Below are positions 7,276 to 63,864 of a stretch of DNA of 64,000 nucleotides, in pieces. The notes below the pieces were generated by a model. It had not been told where the DNA came from. It ran no database searches and worked only from the letters and a program-made list of their open reading frames with translations. Where the stretch lies: assembly GCA_951799445.1 (NCBI GenBank), contig OX637293.1:13950001-14014000 (forward strand). The letters run 5' to 3'. The stretch is from Pseudisothecium myosuroides (Eukaryota > Streptophyta > Bryopsida > Hypnales > Lembophyllaceae). Positions within the stretch are counted from its first letter, which is position 1. Every line of letters begins with the position of its first letter. A program made the position numbers and the translations under genes.

Positions 7276-8721
7276 CTACGCTAGTGACGGATACTTCAAA
7301 CGAAATGCAGCCACGTCTGAGCACTTGTGAAGCGCCTCCAAAAGCGGCCACAGATAGCACTTCAAGTATTCTTTGTCCTCAGCCAATGTCGACAACTCCG
7401 TCATATAGAACAGAGAATTCACGACCACATTTGCTGGGGGATTGCAGGCGACCCTACATAATTTACTGTCCACAATCACTGTGTTCTGGGCACTAAACTC
7501 AGGCCACGCTGCATAAACCTTTTCCAAATTTTTCCCCCACGATGCCGCCGATTCCTCTCCACCATCCCAAAACTCACACTGTTTACCTGACCAAGAGAAC
7601 AAAGGGACGGAATTTGGACCCCTGAATGGACCCACCATCATGGTTGGAACTATGTCGTCCACGAAAGACGTGCTCTTGTTGCCCCAAAAGGCCACTGCAA
7701 AGTGCACAAAGCAACGGGACAGAAATGGCTTCAGCCACGGCCTGAACACTACTCGCCTCTGCTCAGTCTTTGTTGAAGACCTGATTTTGCTGTTTGGGTT
7801 GGGTTCGGCAAGCAAGCTACAATCAAGCAAGGTCCCTTGGACATTGAACACTACTAACTTAGCCCTCCCCCGAGTACTCCCTACCGCCCCATTGCCCCCC
7901 ATCATTCCAGGCCGACCTTTTGTCAACATATTCTGAGGGACCCCAGTGCCAGCGTGTACCTTCACAAGAGACTTCACGTTCTTCTTTGTCTTCTTCTGAG
8001 AAGGATCCGCTTCGACAGGGGCGGCGCTTGCTTGGCTGACTGCGTCCACTTCCACGGGGGTAGGACTTGCTTTGATGACTGCCTCAGTGTCTATGGGGGC
8101 AGGAACGACAATGGGCGACCCCACAACATCCGGAGGCGCGTCCGGCATTTCCAGAGATGGTGCCGGGTGCTGCTCCATGGCAACCCCCGACGGTGGGTTC
8201 ACGGCTGGTTCTCGTGGTGTAGGCTTCTCCGTCGGTTTAGGTGACGTCTCCGCCGTTGGCTCCATCTCTTGTGTTGGAACCGTGACTGCTGCTGCCTCCG
8301 CCTCCGTTGTTGGCTCCATATCCCCAGTTGGCTCCGTCTCCGCTGCAGACGCCATTTCCTCGTCCTTCGTCGTCTTCTCAAGTGGCTCCATGTTATAAAC
8401 CCTGGTTTCATCATGTGGAGCATTGGGCACGCTACCGGTGCGGGCTGGTGACGCCAACTGCCCACCTGGTGCACTGTTTGTGGCATCCTCCACCATGCTT
8501 GCTTCCATGCCCGCTGGAGTAGACAAGATCACGGACGGCTCCGTCACGGTTGCCTCGCTCGGGGTTGAAGACTTCCGACCCAGTCGAGCATCCGGTGCAG
8601 GATCTTTCCCACGGTTCGCCACTTTCCACTTTCGAGGGGCTTCTGGAGACTTCTGACGCCCATTGCCCACGAATTCTAGACCATCGTCATCCGACAAGGT
8701 GACCTGCGCTGCCGAGGCCAT
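7276..8721 (-). CDS. FCP1/NIF-like pseudophosphatase ORF carried by the CACTA element
   Basis: The 481-codon ORF has a disordered N-terminal half rich in Pro, Thr, Glu and Ala (residues about 1-270), then a fold resembling the FCP1/NLI-interacting phosphatase family (about 285-480). Recognisable blocks are KLVVFNVQGTLLD, VVFRPWLKPFLSRCF, FAVAFWGNKS, NTVIVDSKLCRVACNPP and YLKCYLWPLLEAL. In active members the first block holds DxDxT; here both aspartates are replaced (N and Q), and the later DDSP-like motif reads VDSK. It is therefore probably catalytically dead. The TAG at 7276-7278 is followed in the same frame by ESTDDMISKRRDGSAYEFL up to a donor-like site near 7208, so the stop may be a mutation and the gene longer. 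It starts 30 bp after the end of the TNPA-like frame. Its role in transposition is unknown. Confidence 0.65.
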   Translation of the reverse strand: MASAAQVTLSDDDGLEFVGNGRQKSPEAPRKWKVANRGKDPAPDARLGRKSSTPSEATVTEPSVILSTPAGMEASMVEDATNSAPGGQLASPARTGSVPNAPHDETRVYNMEPLEKTTKDEEMASAAETEPTGDMEPTTEAEAAAVTVPTQEMEPTAETSPKPTEKPTPREPAVNPPSGVAMEQHPAPSLEMPDAPPDVVGSPIVVPAPIDTEAVIKASPTPVEVDAVSQASAAPVEADPSQKKTKKNVKSLVKVHAGTGVPQNMLTKGRPGMMGGNGAVGSTRGRAKLVVFNVQGTLLDCSLLAEPNPNSKIRSSTKTEQRRVVFRPWLKPFLSRCFVHFAVAFWGNKSTSFVDDIVPTMMVGPFRGPNSVPLFSWSGKQCEFWDGGEESAASWGKNLEKVYAAWPEFSAQNTVIVDSKLCRVACNPPANVVVNSLFYMTELSTLAEDKEYLKCYLWPLLEALHKCSDVAAFRLKYPSLA

Positions 8722-8751
8722 GATTTCCTCGACGGATGCTAGCTGAGCTCT

Positions 8752-12869: not shown

Positions 12870-14395
12870 AGGAACTCACTCAAGGAAGGTAACACCCTTT
12901 CTTCCATGTGGAATGTGGAACACTTTTCTTTTTCTTTTTCGAATCCTTTCTCCCAGTGTTCGTGATGATCCCTTTCTTTTTTTTAAATCCTTTCTTCCAT
13001 GCCCACCTGATGATCCCTTATTTTGAGGTTTAATCCTTTCTTCCATGTGTTTGTGTCGATTCCTTATTTCTCGGGTTTAGGATTTAGTCCATGCAGATGT
13101 GATGATCCCTTTCTTTTCGAATCCTTTCTTCCATGATGAAGGATGAACTCCCCTTTTTTTTTTAATCCTTTCTTCCATGTGGAAGGGGAAACACCCTTTT
13201 TTTTTGGTTTAGTCTTTTCTTCCATGATGAAGGATGAACTCCCTTTTTTTTAGAATCTTTTCTTCCATGTGGAAGAGGGAACACCCTTTCTTTTTGTAAA
13301 TCCTTTCTTCCATGGGGAAGGATGAACTCCCTTTTTGTTTTAGAATCCTTTCTTCCATGGGGAAGAATGACCTCCCTTTTTCTTTTGTAAATCCTTTCTT
13401 CCATGTGGAAGAATGAACTCCCTTTTTTTTTTGGAAATCCTTTCTTCCATATGTCAGAATGAACTCCCTTTTTTTTGTGAATCCTTTCTTCCATGTGGAA
13501 GAATGAACCTTTTTTTTTTTAAAATCCTTTCTTCCATGTGGAAGAATGAACTCCCTTTTTTTTTTAGAATCCTTTCTTCCATGGGGAAGAATGACCTCCC
13601 TTTTTTTTTTAAAAATCCTTTCTTCCATGTGGAAGAATGAACTCCCTTTTTTTTTTGTGAATCCTTTCTTCCATGTGGAAGGATGAACTCCCTTTTTTTT
13701 TTTTAAATCTTTTCTTCCATGTGGAAGAATGAACTCCCTTTTTATTTTGTGAATCCTTTCTTCCGTGGGGAAGGATGAACTCCCTTCTTTTTTTAGAATC
13801 CTTTCTTCCATGGGGAAGAATGACCTCCCTTTTTTTTTTTTAAATCCTTTCTTCCATGTGGAAGAATGAATTCCCTTTTTTTTTTAGAATCCTTTCTTCC
13901 ATGGGGAAGAATGACCTCCCTTTTTTTTTTTTAAATCCTTTCTTCCATGTGGAAGAATGAACTTTTTTTTTTGTGAATCCTTTCTTCCATGTGGAAGAAT
14001 GAACTCCCTTCTTTTTTTTTAAATCCTTTCTTCCATGTGGAAGGATGAACCTTCTTTTTTTTTTTTAAATCCTTTCTTCCATGTGGAAGAATGAACTCCC
14101 TTTGTTTTTTTGGTAACACCCTTTCTTCCATGTGGACGTGACGAACTCCCTTTTTTATTTGGTAACACCTTTTCTTCCATGTGGACGTGATGAACTCCCT
14201 CTTCACTCGTGGTTTGAATCCTTTCTTCCATGTGGAAGTAATGAACTCCCTTTTTTTTGGTTTAATCCTTTCTTCCGTATGGAAGAGTAAACCCCCCCTT
14301 TTTTGGGGTTTGAATCCTTTCTTCCATGTGGAAGAATGAACTCCCTTATTGTTTTGTTTTAAATCCTTTCTTCCATATGGAAGAGGGGACTGTCG
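12870..14395. repeat. Minisatellite, unit about 42-46 bp, some 33-35 copies
   Basis: The unit is roughly 'aatcctttcttccatgtggaag' followed by 'aatgaactccc' and a run of 5-12 T. It is regular from about 13190 to 14100 and looser at both edges. Each unit contains CTTCCATGTGGAAG, a small inverted repeat with a 5-bp stem. It lies between the divergent - and + strand genes of the CACTA element. The long - strand frames across it (Met-Glu-Glu-Arg and Lys-rich repeats) are a by-product of the T-runs. Confidence 0.95.
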
Positions 14396-15209
14396 TTACT
14401 TTGTTCTAAATTTGCAAATCGGTTGACTATTGGGTTTATCTTCTTGCAGAGAAATGGAAAACAACTGTGGGACTCACTTATATTTCATAATGCTTGATTG
14501 GTCGGCAAGAAGACACGCGTCCTGGGCTTTTTTGAATGCAGCTAGTTCAACCAAAATCCTAGTTTTCAGAAGACTAGCACTAGCGACAAAACGTGGCACA
14601 GAGTACCTAAAACAGTGGGAGGAGGACCATATCGTTAGCTTAAATTGAACATCACATTCTCTATGTTGGTCGACAACATGGCGGGAACGTTTTATAATAT
14701 GTGGACTCGTTCTCTGTCGTCTGCTCCTTCAGTACTTCTCATAGCATCGTCTTGTTCTTACCTCCTCCCATGCCCCCTGTCCTTCTAAAAGCCCCGTCCG
14801 CAGAACGGAGTCGGACGTTTCCATTGACATCGACACCTGAAACCTCTGTCCATCTGCCGGTCGCCACTACACGCGGTATGCAATTGCGACCCAAAGGCAA
14901 CGAAACTTAATGAGGTCAGCACACGAGTGCTTGTTCTGCTAACCCGAAGTGCCCGACACCACTCTAATAGTCACACAGTCGCAGAAAGCCCCGTTCTGGT
15001 CACTGGTTTGAGTCACGTGAAAGTCACCGATGGGGTCGGTGACTGTCATGCAACTGAATGAAGTCAGTCCTAAGTCGCCAGAAAGTCGCTGGAGTCACGA
15101 AATTCTACTTCACTTACACGCCGATGTTCACCGTCGAACTTGCACTGATGTTTGCGCGCTTCGTGATTGGGGTATAGGAAATCGAAGGATCCGCTTCTTA
15201 TCTGTACAG

Positions 15210-18200
15210 AAGATGATACCTGGCAGACTTCCCCTCTCTGATACTCATCGACAGCGGCTCAGAGATGAACGATTGTGGACGAGGGAGGTGCAACTGGCTT
15301 CTCGAGACAACGCCCGGAGACTGCACTATCCTTGCAGTAAATGCAAGGGTCGTAAGAAAATCTTGATTCGCAATGTGCGGGACCACCTCATTCACAACGG
15401 CAGGGATCCGGGTTCCAGAAGGTGGACTGGCCCAGACACTTTGGATTCCTCAGACGAAGAATGGGAGGAGGCCTTCTGGGCACCTCCTGAACAAGCTGCT
15501 GCGAAAGTTGACGTTGCAATAGATGTTCGGGGTATGGTGGACCAGGTGTTGCTACCTGTGGAAGAGGCAGGCAGCGCTGCAGAGCGATTCGAGGAAGAAG
15601 TTGTCTCCGCTTTCGCCGCAGCGGACTCCATCCAGGAAGAGTGCCGCCAAATGGATCTAGACGACGTTGCAGAAAGTGAAGAGTGTCGCGACACACCACC
15701 ACCCGGAGGGTTAGCCCAGACTGGCAGTGGGGATGACGAGCAGTCCGACGTGCGTGCACTGGAGGAGTCCATGACAATGTTGTACGATGGCACCCGGTCC
15801 AGTACACTAGCCACAACTGTGTTGTTGATGAATCTTTGCACGGTGCATGGCGTTAGCAACACTTGCGCCAACGAACTATTCAGCATCCTAAACCAGCATG
15901 TGCTACCCGAGAAGAATGCCTTGCCAAAGACATATCAAGCGGCAAAGTCCCTCATAGAGAAACTGGGGTTGTCTTACAACACGATTCACGCCTGCGAACA
16001 CGGGTGCGTGCTCTTCCGCGGGGAATACGCTGATGCACTCCGTTGCCCTAAGTGCGGTGGGCCTCGATATCGGGATGAAGTTCGGAAGGCCTTCCCTGTG
16101 AAGGTTCTACGTCATTTTCTAGTAATACCGAGGCTGCAGAGAATGTTCAAGAGCCCCACGTTGTCTAGGCTGATGGTGTGGCATCATAAGAACCATAGTG
16201 ACCAGGAGGGAGGGGACGGTCTCGTCCGTCATCCATGTGATTCAAAGGCTTGGCGTCACTTCCATGACAATGTTGACCCTACTTTTGCGAGTGACCCTCG
16301 GAATGCTCACTTTGCTTTGGCAGCAGACGACGTGAACCCCTTCAAGCAAAACCGGTCATCATGGTCCACATGACTAGTACTTTTGCTAAATTACAATGTC
16401 CCCCCCCCTGGCTCTGCACAAAAAAATTCTTCATGCTGCTAACGCTTCTAATTCCCGGGAGGGACTCAATGACATCCGAAGTATTTGATGTTTACCTGGA
16501 ACCTGTTGTAGATGAGTTCCTACAGCTTTGGTCCGGCGTTCCTGCACGCGATGTTACAAAGGATGCAGGCCAAAAGGCATTCCAGCTGCGCGCCATGTTG
16601 TTGTGGACAATCCACGACTTTCCTAGCTATGGGACAGTGGGAGGCTTCTCCCATCAGGGATACGCTGCATGTCCATGGTGCGGCATGAATCTAGGCGCTG
16701 AGCATTCCCTGGAATTGAACAAGCAAACGTACGAGGGGACTCGGCGCTGGTTACCTGAGCACCATCCTTTCAAGTCGTTTTCCATGAAGGAACACTTCAA
16801 TGGTGCCATGGAAACCAGAGCAGAACCAAAGGCAGTCACAGTGGAGGAGCAGCTGGCGCATGTAGCAGAGTTTCAAGCTTGGAAAGCAGGCAATCAACGA
16901 GCCCTGGACCCGTCCAAAATTCATGGAGTAAAGCGTATGAGCATTTTGTTCAGATTGCCGTACTGGAAGGTGAGTCTATGAAGCGGGCGGGACACTTTGT
17001 ACAACGCCTTGTGGACGCGACGTTGACGGAACTTCTTTGCGGCTTGGGAGTCACGTGGAAGTTTCCAGGAAGTCGTAAATAAGTAGCAGTCACATTAAGC
17101 TACAGGGAGGGAACTACTCGGCAACTGGGTACTGCTGTACTCGGTTGCCCTTGTTGCGTCCTTCACGAAGTCTTCTGTAGCACTTCGTACCAGGCCTGAC
17201 TCTCTGATTTTTTGCCTGTGTTTCTTACTTACAGGATCTCCTCATTCGGAATACGCTCGACGTCATGCACTGCGAAATGAACTTGGCCAAGAACTTCCTG
17301 AAAACCATAACTAGGAAGAAGGACACTGTAAAGGTAAGGAGGGACTTGCAAAGGCAGCAAATTCGGAGACACCTGTGGCTGATCCCGCACCCTAGGAAGG
17401 CCGGTAAGATGTTGAAGCTGCAGGCCTCATACGTATTGACTGAAGAGGAATTCGAGAGGTTTGCTAGGTGCATCGAGTCGTTGAAGACTCGAGCGGTTAT
17501 TCATCAGACCTTGGGAAGTGCATACGCAAAAAGAATTTTGGCGGCCTAAAATCCCATGACTACCACGTCTTGATGCAACAAGTCTTGCCCCTAGCGTTGC
17601 GCGGACTCATGAAACCTGGGCCACGCATGGCAGTGATGCAGATGTGCAAGGTATTCCGGTGCCTATGCACGAAGGTGTACAATCCCAATGATTTTCCCTC
17701 ACTCCAGTCTGACGTTGCTGAGAGCATGGCCTTGCTGGAGATTGAATTCCCCCCATCCTTCTTTGACATTATGACCCACCTCCCCTACCATCTAGCAAAG
17801 GAATTGGACTTGTGTGGACCAATGAGTGCCAAGTGGATGTATCCAGTGGAGCGTTACATGAAAGTATTGAAAAATCATATTCGAAATTTGGCCCGACCAG
17901 AGGTGTGCATGGCAGAGGGGTACTTGAAGAACGAGTGCATTGGCTTCATCACTAAGCACCTGCAGAGGTTTGAATTCACTCAGAGACGCGTGTGGGACGA
18001 AGATGAAGAAATTGGCGATGCTGAGGAAGTTCTTCAAGGCGCAGGGAAGCCATTTGTTATGACCGCTGCCCTACGAGACACCACACATGAGTACGTTCTC
18101 TCGAACGCGTCCGTTATGGAAGATTTCTACAGGTAAGTGCCCACTAAACGTAAAGGACGTGCGACTTACTATGTTGTCGATACCCTAAACCTGGAAGTAT

Positions 18201-37136: not shown

Positions 37137-40100
37137 ATGGCGGAGCCGACGAATGCAGAAATTGATCTGTCGGCTCCGTTTGAGTCTGTGAAAGCTGCAG
37201 TGAGCATGTTTGGTGAAAAAATTCCGACCAAGACGCAAGGGAGCTCCCATCCTCACGTCTCGCATGCTCCACATGCACCAGGTTCACAGTACGTCGGCAC
37301 GTACCATAGTCCTAATCACCAAGCGGAGGTAGGCACGCATTTTGTTAGATTACGCATTTGATTGATCTTCTCAACTGCTTCAATTTCACTTGATATAAGA
37401 ACTATCCTTAAAGTCAATGATATTTCAGATTCGTTATTGAACTACAGAAAAGAAGCTTATTCCAGCACTTATAAATGACATTATTCATTAGAATTTAGCC
37501 CCTAGCTTTTTCACTGAAACAAAGTCAGCACCCCTAATGTGAATGAGCTTAAGGATTTCTCTATCGTTAATACTAATTTTGAGCTGCTGAATGCATGCCC
37601 TCTTGCAGAAAATTGTCGCCCTGGAAACCGAATTGCAGCGTGCTCATTCCGAAATCAACAACTACAAGCAACAACTAGCCACCCATGAAGCTGACACAAC
37701 CGAGTCAACGCTGAAACAATCCCCGTCACTGCCGCGCAAATTATCCGATGGCGCTCGTTGGGAGGATCACCTTGATGCAGTTCTGGGTCCACGGCCTAAG
37801 GCCGTGGTGTCTGAAGACCGTGACATGGAAAATGGCAGCCTACAGAAGGAGCTGGAACTTTCCAAGAGCCAGTATCTGAGTTCTTGTGCAGGTGACCCCA
37901 CTTTGCTACAGACTCCGAGAGCATACTGTTAAGTATATTGTTCAGTTGTTAGAGTTGGACTTTTGCGAGTCAGAGCGTTGCCTTCTTCGCAGTCCTTTTG
38001 CCAGAGAATTTGGCCTTCTTCACAGTTCTTTTGCACCCATGTTGTAGATGTGGAGAAAGCCAAGGCAGAGATTACCAGACTGCAGGCTGAAGTGACATCT
38101 AGTGCCGAGCTTGAAAGTGCAAAGCAAGAGGTGAACAGGTTGCAAGGCGTGGTCAATGCAGCTTGGAATCAGCACGGAGCTTTCACCACGGAGCTGGCAA
38201 GAGCCAAGGAGGAGATTGCAGGGCTTGAATCCCAGTTGCGTGGTGCGCAGGCTTCAAGTGCAGAGCTTGCACATGCTAAGGACGCCAACAATGTGTTGCG
38301 TTCCAGCTTGGACGCCTCTTCAACCGAGCTTTCCAAAACAAGAGAGGAGGTGCTCCAATTACAAGGGCAGCATGGGGAATCTCTTTCTCAGCTTGCAACT
38401 GCACAAAGGGAGAATGAGAAGCTGCAAACTGATTTGAGCATGGCACGGGGTAACTCTTCCACTGAGTTGACGTTGGCTAGGGAACAGATTGAAAAGCTGC
38501 ATGCTGAGGTCGAGTCCGTGCGGGGACAGCATGGAAACGAGCTTGCGAGTGCCAAACAGGAAATTTTGAACCTCCAGGAACAATTGAGCAATGTGTCTCA
38601 GCAGCCTCGGGAGATTCCAGAAACCCCGAATGAGTTGGAAGCAGCTAGAGATCAGATTGAAAAGTTGCATTCTGAGCAGAGTGTTGCGTTGATAGAGCTC
38701 GCAAAGCAGAGAGAAGAGATTGGGAGGCTCCAAAACGATCTAGGTGGCTCTGGGAGGCAAACTCAGGAGTTGAAGGAAGAGATTGGGAGATTGCAGGCTG
38801 ATCTGGTAGTGTTTCAATTTGGCGGTCCTCAATCCGGTTCCAGAGAGGTAGACACTGTGGATCCGGCAGTAATGGACGAGCTCACCATGGAGTTGATGGC
38901 GACGAACGAGCACCTAGAGAAAGCCACAGCAGCCAGGATGAAGGCTGAGGTAGAGCTCGCAGCTGCCAGAGAGGAGGCTGAGGAGGCTAGTGTCCTGAGA
39001 GCAGCTTTAGACAATGTTCGGGCTGAGCTGAAAGGAGCCAAGGAAGCAGAGCGAAAATTAGGTGACACAATGACAGTGACGGAGGAGCTACGAGCGCAGG
39101 TTGCACTGATGAAAGAGAGTGAAGCGAAGGCCGCTAAAGTTGCGGCCGAATCGAACGAGGAGTTGCTGTCCCTCAACACTGCACTTACCATGGTGAGGGA
39201 ATCCGAACAGGAGTTAAGCAAGCTGGTTGATGACTTGCGGTCGGAGGTTGAGGCTCTGAAGGCCGAGCTTGTGGCTGTCAAGGAATCTGAGGGGCAAATG
39301 AGAGAGTCGTACACGACGACTAAAACTGAGCTTGAGAGTGTGAGTACGGAGTTGTCGAAAGTGAGACAAGCCGAAGAGATGGCCAGTGGAATAGTTGCTA
39401 CATCTTCCGTTGAGTTGGAGGCTTTGACAGCTGAACTGGCGACTACCAAGGAAGGTGAATCACGAGCCAAGGCCGCGTTTACAGATTACAGCCTGAAGCT
39501 TCAAAGAATGAGAGTAGAACTGGAAGATGCTTCAAAGGTCGTCGACAAGGTACTCACAGATATGCTTTATCCTGTTTTTGAGACTTATTTGCTGCGCAGG
39601 TTGGGTTCTTTTGTAAGGTGATGTGCACAGATATTCTCCTTGGGAAGTAATTTCCTTCAGTGATCATCATTGACGTCCATTGAGTCTTTTTTGCAGGCAA
39701 GGGCATATAAAATCGACTTAGACGAAGCTAATGCGAAGCTGAAAAAGTTAGTGGAATCGGAGAGGACCATGTCCGCTTCCGTGGCATCTTTGCGAGCCGA
39801 AGTGAAGAATGCACGTGCAGAGATAGAATCTGTGAGAGAGGAGGGAGAAGCTGCGTTGGCTGAGAAAGAGGAGTCAATCGAAATGGAGATGACTCAGATG
39901 AGGACGGAATGGGAGGCTGCTGTGTCAGAAGAGGCCAAGCTGAGGGAGCAAGTGTCGACATTATCTGAAACTTCGACCAAGGTTTGTTGGGTCCACTCAT
40001 AGTGCATGTATTCAGGACGCGATTAGGTTCTTGCTTCTTGCAAGTTCCAACAATGCCAGAGATTTTACACTTTCGCGATGTAGTTAATTTTATTTAGCTA

Positions 40101-60724: not shown

Positions 60725-63700
60725 TTAACCTCCGTAATCCCCCGCTTCGAACTTGTCCTCCGGATAGTACACAGCAACTACCAAGTTTTCATCGAATCTC
60801 CGCCCATGAAGTGAAGCCTTCGCTTTTGCGGCACCAGCAATATCAGAATACTCGAGAAAGACCTGAGAAAAGGGAATCAACTGTTAAAGAAAGAACTGAC
60901 CTGGTACCAGAAGACGAGACTTATCTGTGACATTGAGTTGGAAAAAGTAGTTCTAGATAATGAAATCGATGAACAACTTTAAATAGGAGTTTAGAATTTG
61001 TTTCAGACCTTGCCCAATCCAGGAACATCTTCACCACCTCTGGGTCTTGGAATGACAACATTCACCAAGTTCCCTGCGACAAAAAAACAAGTAAATCAAA
61101 TGCTCCGACATCCACACCTGTCTCCAAAAAATCACAAACGAACCTGAATTCAACTGTGACAAGTTGCTACTAGATTGCTCCCTGGACACGTACCATACTT
61201 CCCGCATTCAGTCTTCATGTCTTCCAGGATTTCCTCGTACTCTTCGGTATCTTCCAGCTGACGGGGTGTTACAACCTTCACACATTTGCAAGCGATAAGT
61301 ATCCTAAAAGGTTAATACCCAATTCAGATCATGTCAGAAGAAGACAATATGTCCTCTTCCCACCCAATGCATAAAGTCTGCGACATAAACAAAAATAATC
61401 ACTCAAAATTAATATTCAAGACTACTTTTTTAGGGTCGAGAAAGCGAAATTACCTCGGTCAACGCGACAACCTTGGTAGGATTTTCTAATGCAAGGCCAT
61501 TTCCCATCCCAGTCATCATTGGGAACATTGACATGCCACCTAGGGCCACTGCATTGGCGCCACTAGCTTGTAATGCAAGTTTCTGCACATCCATGAGTTC
61601 GTGAGTACAGAACTATGCATTACCAGAGTTCAGAGAAAAACATGAAAAAACGATAGCATGCCAGAGTTACTAGACTGATTTTGATGTCATTATCGGGCAC
61701 GAGAAGAGTTAACGAATCCACAAAACAGTCCCAGAGCATCTTCCCAAGACTTCCCAAACATTTCAACGTTACCTGCATGGCAATTTGCTGTTGTGCATGC
61801 GCCAAAACATTTGCTTGATCAGGCTTGGGTTGTCCACTGCAACAACAGCACATAACATCAGATTAAAAATTTAAAAACAAAATATTCTTCAAGCCCTTGA
61901 AACTATGGAACATCTCATATGTATATCGAGTCAAAAATTCAACGAACATTATGTTTACTAGAACTAAACTAGTTGGTATCTTAGACAAGAAACAGTCTAA
62001 ATTGATTCTTACTAAATGCAGTAAGAATTCTTCATCGAAAAGATGAAATAAAGGATAGTTTCACATCCCATGGAGTCAACGGACATCCATACAAAGTATA
62101 ATACGTGGTATTGTAAGCATTGACTTTCCAAAGGAAAGCCAATGAACAAAAATGAATCCCAAGACCTGTAAGTGGACTAAAGCCAACCTTGCCGTGGCTC
62201 GGCGAACGTTTAAAGTCTTGTCATCCATTTTCATGCCATTAAGCGTTGCACAGGCAATATCCACAACTGAAGGATCCTGCGAAAGGAAAGTAGACACACA
62301 GACGGACAAAGTGAGCAAGATAAGCAAATTTCTCTACCTGGCAGACGCCCGACGCACGCTTAGAGTCTTATCGCCCATTTTCAAACCATTAAGTGCCGCT
62401 ATGGCAACGTCAGTAGTAACAGACGGGTCCTGCAGATAATGTGGTTGGTCACACCTCACAAGTTAACCACGAAGATGTCCAGCTAATTTAATTTAACTAA
62501 CTCTTCAGCCCTTATGCATGGAATCAAAGACAAACAAACTTAACAAACAATGTTTTCCAAAGGAATTAATTATTGAGTACTTCAGTAAAAACAAGATGTA
62601 AAAAATAAAATGGACAGTCTTTGAAACGAGTTGCAAATGACATACCTGATAAACACAGAAGCCATAACCTTTAGAGTTCCCAGTATCACGGTCCTTGACA
62701 AGATCAAAACCTCGCAGAGGTCTGGAAAACACAAAGAAAACGAAAAGATTAGTACCTTCCTGTTCGATCATACGATCAACCTAAAGCGAAGACCTCAATA
62801 CTAAATGCATGCAATCGAAGAAATCTTACCCAAAGGACTCAAGTAACTCTTTGATCTGAACCTCGGTCAAATAATAGGGCAAACCTCCAACAAAGATACG
62901 GTCAGGCCCATCAGCCCCTCCGGCAGCGCTTCTACAAGATTCAAAACAAATTAGTTTAATAAGCATCTACTTCAAAACGGGCGACGAGCACAACAATATA
63001 TCAGCTCCACAATTAGAACAACAATATACTAGCTCCACAATCATATACCAACTCCACAATTAGTACATGGCTTCAATTAATGCTGCAGATAAGATTGTAA
63101 TATATTCCACCACACCAAGTTTACAGTAAAATAAGAAAAACTCCTTCCTGTTGTTTACAGAAGGATTGAAAAAAGACAATACCGCTAACTGATTATTGAA
63201 AGTGGTGAAGATCATACCCAGGAGTTAAGCCGACTGCCGCCAGGTTGAGATGCGGACTAGGTTGACTTGGACCAAGAGTTGCGGCCATGGAAGGATTATA
63301 ATCACTCGGTCTTCTCACTCTTACAGAAACTCCCTGATATACGAAGTAAAGGTAAAGTGTTTCATCAGTTGTCTTCCAACATAATTCAGGTTAGAACAAA
63401 AGTAGGTGGCACAAAACTGTAGTTTCTGCAGAGCACAAAACTGACACGGGTGGTCACATGAAGCGCTATAGAGGAATCAAACAGGTATCAGGTCCTATTG
63501 ATACACCCTGGAGTGTCGAAAACCAGCCCTCTATGGTCAAAAAACAAGCGATCCAAACATTTAGACTCTCGACTCAAGTGTTCGGTTCTGTGCATCAGTA
63601 AATATGCCCCCATCGTGATAATGGGTAGGGCGACACCTTGAATCGAGGATAATCAACGTTTAATCCACAATGCAACATATTTTCCGGTTAGAAGAAAACT

Positions 63701-63864
63701 AGAAATAATAACCCAATAATAGTGATTTGTGAAATAATGAGATAGAAATACCTCAAAAATAATGCCATCCAGAGCCATAGCATTGCTAGCTTCTTCAACG
63801 GTCCGCATCTCAACAAACGCAAACTTCTTCTCTTGGTTGATGTACACGTTGACAACAGCGTCAC
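60725..63864 (-). CDS. U2AF65: U2AF large subunit (U2AF65), 3' two thirds
   Basis: Exons on the - strand: 63864-63752, 63333-63218, 62931-62830, 62721-62646, one of 62429-62338 or 62276-62188, 61836-61773, 61582-61454, 61275-61194, 61073-61009 and 60862-60725 (stop TAA). All junctions are GT-AG with matching phases, giving 324 or 323 codons. Visible parts: the end of RRM1 (KKFAFVEMRTVEEASNAM), the linker, RRM2 (RIFVGGLPYYLTE... NSKGYGFCVYQ), the linker GQPKPDQANVLAHAQQQIA, and the C-terminal UHM with its R-x-F motif (LHGRRFDENLVVAVYYPEDK). U2AF65 binds the polypyrimidine tract at 3' splice sites and recruits the U2 snRNP; the UHM contacts SF1. The RS domain and start of RRM1 lie beyond the right edge. 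Confidence 0.95.
62188..62429 (-). other. U2AF65: Tandem alternative RRM2 exons of U2AF65
   Basis: Exon 62429-62338 (92 nt) encodes DPSVTTDVAIAALNGLKMGD and KTLSVRRASA; exon 62276-62188 (89 nt) encodes DPSVVDIACATLNGMKMDDK and TLNVRRATA. Both have phase-0 acceptors and phase-2 donors and can splice to 61836. The intervening intron (62337-62277) is only 61 nt. Including both gives TGA 14 codons into the second; including neither gives TGA six codons on. Exactly one copy is therefore required. Confidence 0.85.

What the first reader, a model, noticed from the sequence alone, without database searches (positions are those of the whole stretch)
62188..62429. Predicted mutually exclusive exons in a core splicing factor
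U2AF65 RRM2 is completed by either of two tandem homologous exons. They are separated by a 61-nt intron, share phases, and both double inclusion and double skipping cause early stops. The copies differ at about ten residues, in the RRM2 C-terminal helix and strand. Mutually exclusive exons are rare in plants; here they would give two U2AF65 isoforms with possibly different pyrimidine-tract preference, and the off-frame forms could feed nonsense-mediated decay.
Basis: partly seen in the sequence, partly recalled or inferred. Interest (0 to 1): 0.88.

Follow-up and report, generated by a model that had tools for sequence, protein, structure and literature searches.

The report
Swappable twin exons in moss U2AF65
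A moss gene for the core splicing factor U2AF65 carries two back-to-back, related versions of one exon, both versions occur in moss and in liverwort U2AF65 proteins, and each messenger is therefore likely to use one or the other, much like the known twin-exon switch in U2AF1, the gene for its partner protein in humans.

Summary
On the minus strand, exon A (62338-62429, 92 nt) and exon B (62188-62276, 89 nt) are homologous, share phase and are separated by a 61-nt intron. Either alone keeps a U2AF65 frame open to the stop at 60725; both, or neither, gives an early stop. The source is a moss.

The strongest evidence is from relatives. Two Physcomitrium patens proteins agree in 299 of 299 residues of the compared region outside this exon, yet carry A or B. 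Marchantia carries B and Riccia sorocarpa A in orthologues 96% identical elsewhere (294/306). B-type peptides differ at one residue of 28 between mosses and liverworts. The pair likely predates the moss-liverwort split and is under purifying selection.

Mutual exclusion is inferred: branch-point motifs lie 17 and 26 nt from A's 5' splice site, both wrong forms hold stops, and no unusual RNA structure was seen. No reads were available. A changed pyrimidine-tract preference is unsupported: residues likely to contact RNA are the same in both. The nearest known system is human U2AF1 exons 3/Ab. Seven capped paper searches listed none I recognised as describing this in U2AF65.

The parts
62338..62429 (-). 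Exon A, 92 nt, DPSVTTDVAIAALNGLKMGDKTLSVRRASA(+AG)
   Evidence: A-type peptide in P. patens, Sphagnum, Calypogeia and Riccia sorocarpa proteins
62188..62276 (-). Exon B, 89 nt, DPSVVDIACATLNGMKMDDKTLNVRRATA(+AG)
   Evidence: B-type peptide in 7 of 181 held homologues: P. patens (3), a JGI contig that falls among mosses, Marchantia, Riccia fluitans, one unnamed transcriptome
62277..62337 (-). 61-nt intron between A and B; yUnAy motif matches 17 and 26 nt from A's 5' splice site; pyrimidine-rich 3' end
62646..62721 (-). Upstream exon E4 (RRM2, ends GYGFCVYQ)
61773..61836 (-). Downstream exon E6 (SGQPKPDQ...)
62830..62931 (-). Exon E3, start of RRM2
63218..63333 (-). Exon E2, end of RRM1 and linker
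63752..63864 (-). Exon E1, part of RRM1; the gene goes on upstream outside the window to a likely start at about G000:C7:14018048
61454..61582 (-). Exon E7, linker
61194..61275 (-). Exon E8, start of C-terminal UHM
61009..61073 (-). Exon E9, UHM
60725..60862 (-). Exon E10, end of UHM and TAA stop

Best explanation
Exons A and B are tandem homologous exons of a moss U2AF65 gene, and they are predicted to be spliced so that each mRNA holds exactly one of them, completing RRM2 (helix alpha2 to strand beta4) in either of two versions. Shown: the anatomy, the frames, and the presence of both versions in relatives' proteins. Inferred: U1 on A's 5' splice site and U2 on B's branch point, 17-26 nt apart, cannot act together, so A-to-B joining is blocked or poor; any mRNA with both or neither hits an early stop with several junctions downstream and is likely destroyed. 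Inferred: the choice is set at the 3' splice sites, where A's tract is poorer in pyrimidines than B's, so that U2AF levels could feed back on the choice. Inferred: the isoforms differ mainly on the alpha2/loop face, so they more likely differ in protein contacts or RRM1-RRM2 arrangement than in base recognition.
For: Frames: A alone and B alone both read to TAA; A+B and neither give early stops. Selection: 21 of 29 aligned residues kept, 13 of these 21 codons changed silently, dN 0.19; no dS could be computed (NG86 returned -1, YN00 nothing), which I read as saturation. Same-gene isoforms in P. patens: P0006 (A) and P0007 (B) identical in 299/299 compared residues outside the exon; over their whole lengths they differ besides only by one 15-residue stretch nearer the start. 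Orthologue swap in liverworts: Marchantia P0010 (B) against R. sorocarpa P0009 (A), 294/306 outside the exon; R. fluitans (B) and R. sorocarpa (A) are sisters, support 99. B differs at 1 of 28 residues between mosses and liverworts. Records too short to hold the introns exist for each form: P0122 (B, 572 aa on a 1937-nt contig) and P0003 (A, 344 aa on a 1696-nt contig). Spacing; the proposed threshold of about 50 nt is from PMC7969005 (passages). Paralogue control: the other U2AF65 gene of this genome (C6) has one copy of this exon at the same place.
Against: No RNA reads of this species were available, so use of either exon here is untested. I saw both exons side by side in the DNA of this genome only; in relatives the case rests on proteins, some of which may be predicted models. 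The steric threshold was worked out in animals; mosses may splice a 61-nt intron, so exclusion may rest on decay rather than on a block. The branch points are motif matches. The splice-site contrast is modest: A's pyrimidine share (11/20) is matched by two other introns of the gene and exceeds a third, B's (15/20) is matched by two and exceeded by one. No B-type showed among the Sphagnum and vascular-plant proteins in the capped lists; clustering at 90% can hide isoforms either way. In P. patens a proteome study found few protein isoforms from alternative splicing overall (PMC5457400, passages).
Confidence: 0.86

Rival explanations
1. One exon is a decaying or rarely used relic; the gene works through a single form.
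For: Both 5' splice sites are weak by eye (GTAGAG, GTTGGC: 5 of 8 consensus positions; two other introns of the gene also have 5; read). Ceratodon's two listed proteins carry an eroded A-like exon (P0012, P0087).
Against: B is identical in 28 of 28 residues to P. patens B and 27 of 28 to Marchantia B; A is identical to P. patens P0004. Many silent changes with protein kept.
Confidence: 0.06
2. The exons are alternative, but exclusion is not enforced by geometry: A-B splicing happens and yields a decay-prone mRNA that tunes U2AF65 level (poison double inclusion). This overlaps with the main reading rather than excluding it.
For: The double form has a stop at the 15th full codon of B, upstream of five remaining junctions. 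Human U2AF1 double-inclusion mRNA is downregulated by NMD (PMC5224494 introduction).
Against: The intron is 61 nt, shortest of the ten introns read here (next 108 nt), with branch-point matches 17 and 26 nt from the 5' splice site.
Confidence: 0.3
3. The choice is enforced by competing RNA secondary structures, as in insect Dscam-type clusters (comparison recalled).
For: A known mechanism for tandem exons (PMC6071210, abstract start in search listing).
Against: The 301-nt pair region folds no better than shuffles (z +0.97; 79 of 100 shuffles at least as stable). Longer spans were not folded.
Confidence: 0.04
4. A/B differences in relatives come from separate paralogous genes, and the tandem pair here is a local oddity.
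For: P. patens has several U2AF65 loci (different contig lengths), and no relative's DNA could be read.
Against: P0006/P0007 are identical in 299/299 compared residues; Riccia A and B forms are sister orthologues.
Confidence: 0.04

Closest known systems
Vertebrate U2AF1 (U2AF35) exons 3 and Ab
   Same: Tandem homologous exons inside an RRM-type domain of a U2AF subunit; few residue changes (seven); both-in and both-out forms carry stops and are cut down by NMD (PMC5224494 introduction).
   Different: The small subunit, in animals; exons 67 nt each in the UHM. Here it is the large subunit in bryophytes, RRM2, with exons of 92 and 89 nt. Independent origin is inferred.
OGDH exons 4a/4b and alpha-tropomyosin mutually exclusive exons
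   Same: Branch point of the second exon too close to the first exon's 5' splice site (human OGDH 25-41 nt; PMC7969005 passages; tropomyosin from a reference title there).
   Different: Branch points here are only motif matches, in a plant.
Other plant U2AF65 alternative splicing
   Same: A family survey reports alternative transcripts of U2AF65B in bryophytes, among them P. patens and Marchantia (PMC12027700 section 2.7).
   Different: It gives no event type there, and the words 'mutually exclusive' do not occur in the main text of that survey or of PMC8635922; supplements were not seen.

Membership tests
U2AF65 (U2AF large subunit) | RS region, RRM1, RRM2 and C-terminal UHM in order | tested here: met
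   93% identity to P. patens U2AF large subunit. In Pfam only RRM2 passes its cut-off on the window part; RRM1 is partial there. A stretch matching P. patens query residues 142-160 was not found in L009
Mutually exclusive exons | Tandem homologous exons of equal phase and similar length | tested here: met
Mutually exclusive exons | Both-in and both-out break the frame | tested here: met
Mutually exclusive exons | Each mRNA holds exactly one of the two | not testable with these tools
   No reads for this species; relatives' proteins show one or the other
Mutually exclusive exons | Both versions kept in related species | tested here: met
   In proteins; not seen in relatives' DNA
Sterically enforced exclusion | 5' splice site to branch point under about 50 nt | tested here: inconclusive
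   Motif matches at 17 and 26 nt; branch point not mapped
Structure-enforced exclusion | Excess RNA structure around the pair | tested here: not met
   z +0.97; only 301 nt folded

The most novel reading that the evidence does not exclude
The first land plants already had a two-state U2AF65, switched by twin RRM2 exons; bryophytes keep it and vascular plants lost exon B. U2AF thus gained the same kind of twin-exon switch twice, in the large subunit of plants and the small subunit of vertebrates, with the splicing factor's own level choosing its form. Exon B keeps the NGM found in all six named streptophyte-algal proteins held, whereas exon A shares NGL with nearly all vascular-plant proteins held.
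Probability: 0.3. Interest if true: 0.85.

Novelty: new member of a known kind. Interest (0 to 1): 0.68.

Why it matters
Mutually exclusive exons are thought scarce in plants (general knowledge, not tested here). This pair lies in a core splicing factor, seems at least as old as the moss-liverwort split, and sits in genetically tractable mosses and liverworts. It makes testable whether two U2AF65 forms do different work, and whether both U2AF subunits took to the same kind of switch independently.

Tried and rejected
A third copy of the exon: none in the window. In the whole genome the only other U2AF65-type place found is the single-exon paralogue on C6. In one search all 61 candidates were scored, but exon A itself was only just under the cut-off (E 9.3e-4), so a more diverged stray copy could be missed.

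RNA-structure control of the choice: no excess structure in 301 nt.

Contacts of the exon's residues with RNA in PMC4786784: the six residue names I tried are not in its text.

Proteomic support in P. patens: the main text of PMC5457400 does not mention U2AF; its supplements were not seen.

Papers on this switch: seven searches listed 20 of 47, 15 of 16 (13), 25 of 1,265 (20), 4 of 4 (28), 2 of 2 (31), 3 of 3 (53) and 0 (54) papers; none listed did I recognise as describing it. I read listings, and passages of some; subscription journals are not held.

AlphaFold models of an A form (P0005, mean pLDDT 68.0, pTM 0.34) and a B form (P0010, 61.9, 0.29) gave RRM2 with the same elements; they say nothing about affinity. 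Foldseek of the A model alone returned human U2AF65 structures first.

Dating the duplication: the exon has only 28 residues, so no exon tree was built; the NGM/NGL argument is one site. P0013's placement is unsupported (29-30), so I do not use it for dating. That tree put liverworts with vascular plants (support 79) rather than with mosses, and joined the long Ceratodon branch to the window (80); I do not lean on either.

Full report
What is there. On the minus strand ten exons in the window, one of them being A or B, spell the C-terminal 323-324 residues of a U2AF large subunit: the end of RRM1, RRM2, the linker and the UHM, to TAA at 60725. Upstream of the window in the same genome, tblastn finds further exons with the RS region, the first part of RRM1 and a start codon. 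Only a stretch matching query residues 142-160 was not found, and those splice sites were not checked, so the gene looks full-length. The closest known proteins are from Physcomitrium patens (93% over the A-form query; 278/293 outside the exon pair, 94.9%). In Pfam, RRM2 passes its cut-off in both forms; the cut RRM1 does not. Human U2AF65 chains match over RRM1-RRM2 and over the UHM. The source is a moss; the species was not identified. The genome held is 387.9 Mb in 222 contigs and the window is C7:13950001-14014000.

The pair. Between E4 and E6 lie exon A (92 nt) and exon B (89 nt), both preceded by AG and followed by GT, both starting in phase 0 and ending with two extra bases. A alone gives ...VYQ-DPSVTTDVAIAALNGLKMGDKTLSVRRASA-SGQ...; B alone gives ...VYQ-DPSVVDIACATLNGMKMDDKTLNVRRATA-SGQ.... 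Both reach the normal stop. A+B stops at the 15th full codon of B; skipping both stops after five codons of E6. In each case several exon junctions remain downstream, which is the usual setting for nonsense-mediated decay (general knowledge; not tested). A and B keep 21 of 29 aligned residues, with one extra residue in A; 13 of the 21 kept codons differ silently and dN is 0.19. The program gave no dS (NG86 -1, YN00 nothing), which I read as saturation. So the duplication is old and both copies were held by selection on protein. The resemblance is well above shuffles (44 against at most 27 in 2000), and the neighbouring introns score 14-16 against A, near the shuffle mean of 13.4.

Relatives. 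Three protein searches listed the best 120 each of 1207, 196 and 299 matches, 181 different proteins in all. Seven of these 181 carry the B-type core ACATLNGMKMDDK: P. patens P0001, P0002 and P0007, a JGI contig P0122, Marchantia P0010, Riccia fluitans P0015, and P0013 from an unnamed transcriptome. Five of the 181 escaped the peptide pattern; their printed segments are A-like. The rest are A-like, or of other U2AF65 groups, or algal. P. patens P0006 and P0007 are identical over 299 of 299 compared residues outside the exon but carry A and B; over their whole lengths they differ besides only by one 15-residue stretch, another alternative segment. Marchantia P0010 (B) and R. sorocarpa P0009 (A) agree in 294 of 306 residues outside the exon. 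On a tree of the window and 34 of the 181 proteins, made without the exon columns (293 columns), R. fluitans (B) and R. sorocarpa (A) are sisters with support 99, and B forms lie in both the moss group (93) and the liverwort group (99). This is what alternative exons of one gene, each caught by different records, would give. Against this: none of the Sphagnum or vascular-plant proteins in these capped lists is B-type; Ceratodon's two listed proteins have an eroded A-like exon (P0012, P0087); the tree sets liverworts with vascular plants (79) rather than with mosses; and I had no plant DNA other than this genome to see both exons side by side elsewhere.

Use in RNA. P0122 is 572 residues on a 1937-nt contig, too short for the introns, so it comes from spliced sequence or a retrocopy, with B. 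P0003 is 344 residues on a 1696-nt contig, with A, though its first residues read into unspliced sequence. P0013 carries a transcript-assembly name and B. These support use of each form in some moss or relative; they do not show the choice in this species.

Paralogue control. The same genome has a second U2AF65-type gene on C6 (matches at 17230445-17232545). The borders of its matching exon are at the same places, the exon is single (DPSVMDIACAALNGLKMGDRTLTVRRASA), and the exon queries find no second copy in the 7 kb read.

How it likely works. The A-B intron is the shortest of the ten introns read (61 nt; next 108). Its branch-point motif matches lie 44 and 35 nt from the 3' end, so 17 and 26 nt from A's 5' splice site. 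In animals a distance under about 50 nt is a proposed steric limit, and human OGDH exons 4a/4b use 25-41 nt (PMC7969005, passages). Hence A-to-B joining is likely blocked or poor. B's 3' splice site is more pyrimidine-rich than A's (15 of 20 against 11 of 20; U 10 against 5). The contrast is modest: the other eight introns of the gene range from 10 to 17 of 20. Both 5' splice sites fit 5 of 8 consensus positions by eye, as do two others of the ten. Since U2AF65 itself reads such tracts, feedback of U2AF on the choice is a natural, untested idea. No excess RNA structure was found in 301 nt.

What the two forms may do. The exon covers helix alpha2 and strand beta4 of RRM2 in models of an A and a B form (A: 208-218 and 229-232 of P0005; B: 232-242 and 253-257 of P0010; modest overall confidence). 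In the 42 proteins aligned, the N, G, M, D, T, L, V, R, R and the first K of this segment are invariant, and the K of DKT nearly so; both exons have them all. From memory, the human equivalents of the DKT lysine and the RR arginine are among those that touch RNA. The G/D difference is at what I take to be human G326 (alignment, numbering recalled), in the alpha2-beta4 loop, reported as solvent-exposed and not touching RNA (PMC7408900, passages). I therefore lean to altered protein contacts or domain arrangement rather than new base preference.

Known systems. U2AF1, the human gene for the partner subunit, has tandem 67-nt exons 3 and Ab with seven residue differences; mRNAs that include or exclude both carry stops and are reduced by NMD (PMC5224494, abstract, introduction and passages; PMC4402522, passages). 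The moss pair looks built to work like that, in the other subunit. Two family surveys of plant U2AF65 do not use the words 'mutually exclusive' in their main text (PMC8635922, passages; PMC12027700, passages and section 2.7). Seven paper searches (lists capped) gave no report that I recognised. The P. patens isoforms themselves are already in public databases, so the raw facts are not wholly unseen.

Age. Moss and liverwort proteins include both forms, so the pair likely predates their split. B keeps NGM as do all six named streptophyte-algal proteins held (Chara twice, Closterium twice, Mesotaenium and Spirogloea, the last two named by recall from their tags); A shares NGL with nearly all vascular-plant proteins held, a few having NGI. 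This hints at a duplication before bryophytes and vascular plants parted, but it is a single site.

Noticed in passing
L009:2390-2650 (genome C7, upstream of the window): A short segment encoding QFGGLPGMPAQAMTQ sits behind what looks like a small intron; P. patens proteins exist with and without its counterpart, so it is likely a second alternative segment of the same gene.
   Followed up: partly
G000:C6:17230445-17232545 (L038): Second U2AF65-type gene of this moss, with a single copy of the RRM2 exon and an added FMGF at the next exon start, as in P. patens P0042.
   Followed up: partly
15021-18136: DNA transposon remnant or copy with Transposase_21 (tnp2) and DUF4218 matches; CACTA-like by recall.
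   Followed up: no
13120-14384: Tandem array of a 46-bp unit, about 27.5 copies, 81% matches.
   Followed up: no
7276-8751: Minus-strand open frame with an NLI-interacting-factor-like phosphatase match.
   Followed up: no
37933-39621: Long open frame with a WEMBL match, 'weak chloroplast movement under blue light'.
   Followed up: no
62125-62136 and 62554-62565: An identical 12-nt near-palindrome TTTCCAAAGGAA lies on either side of the exon pair; may be chance.
   Followed up: no
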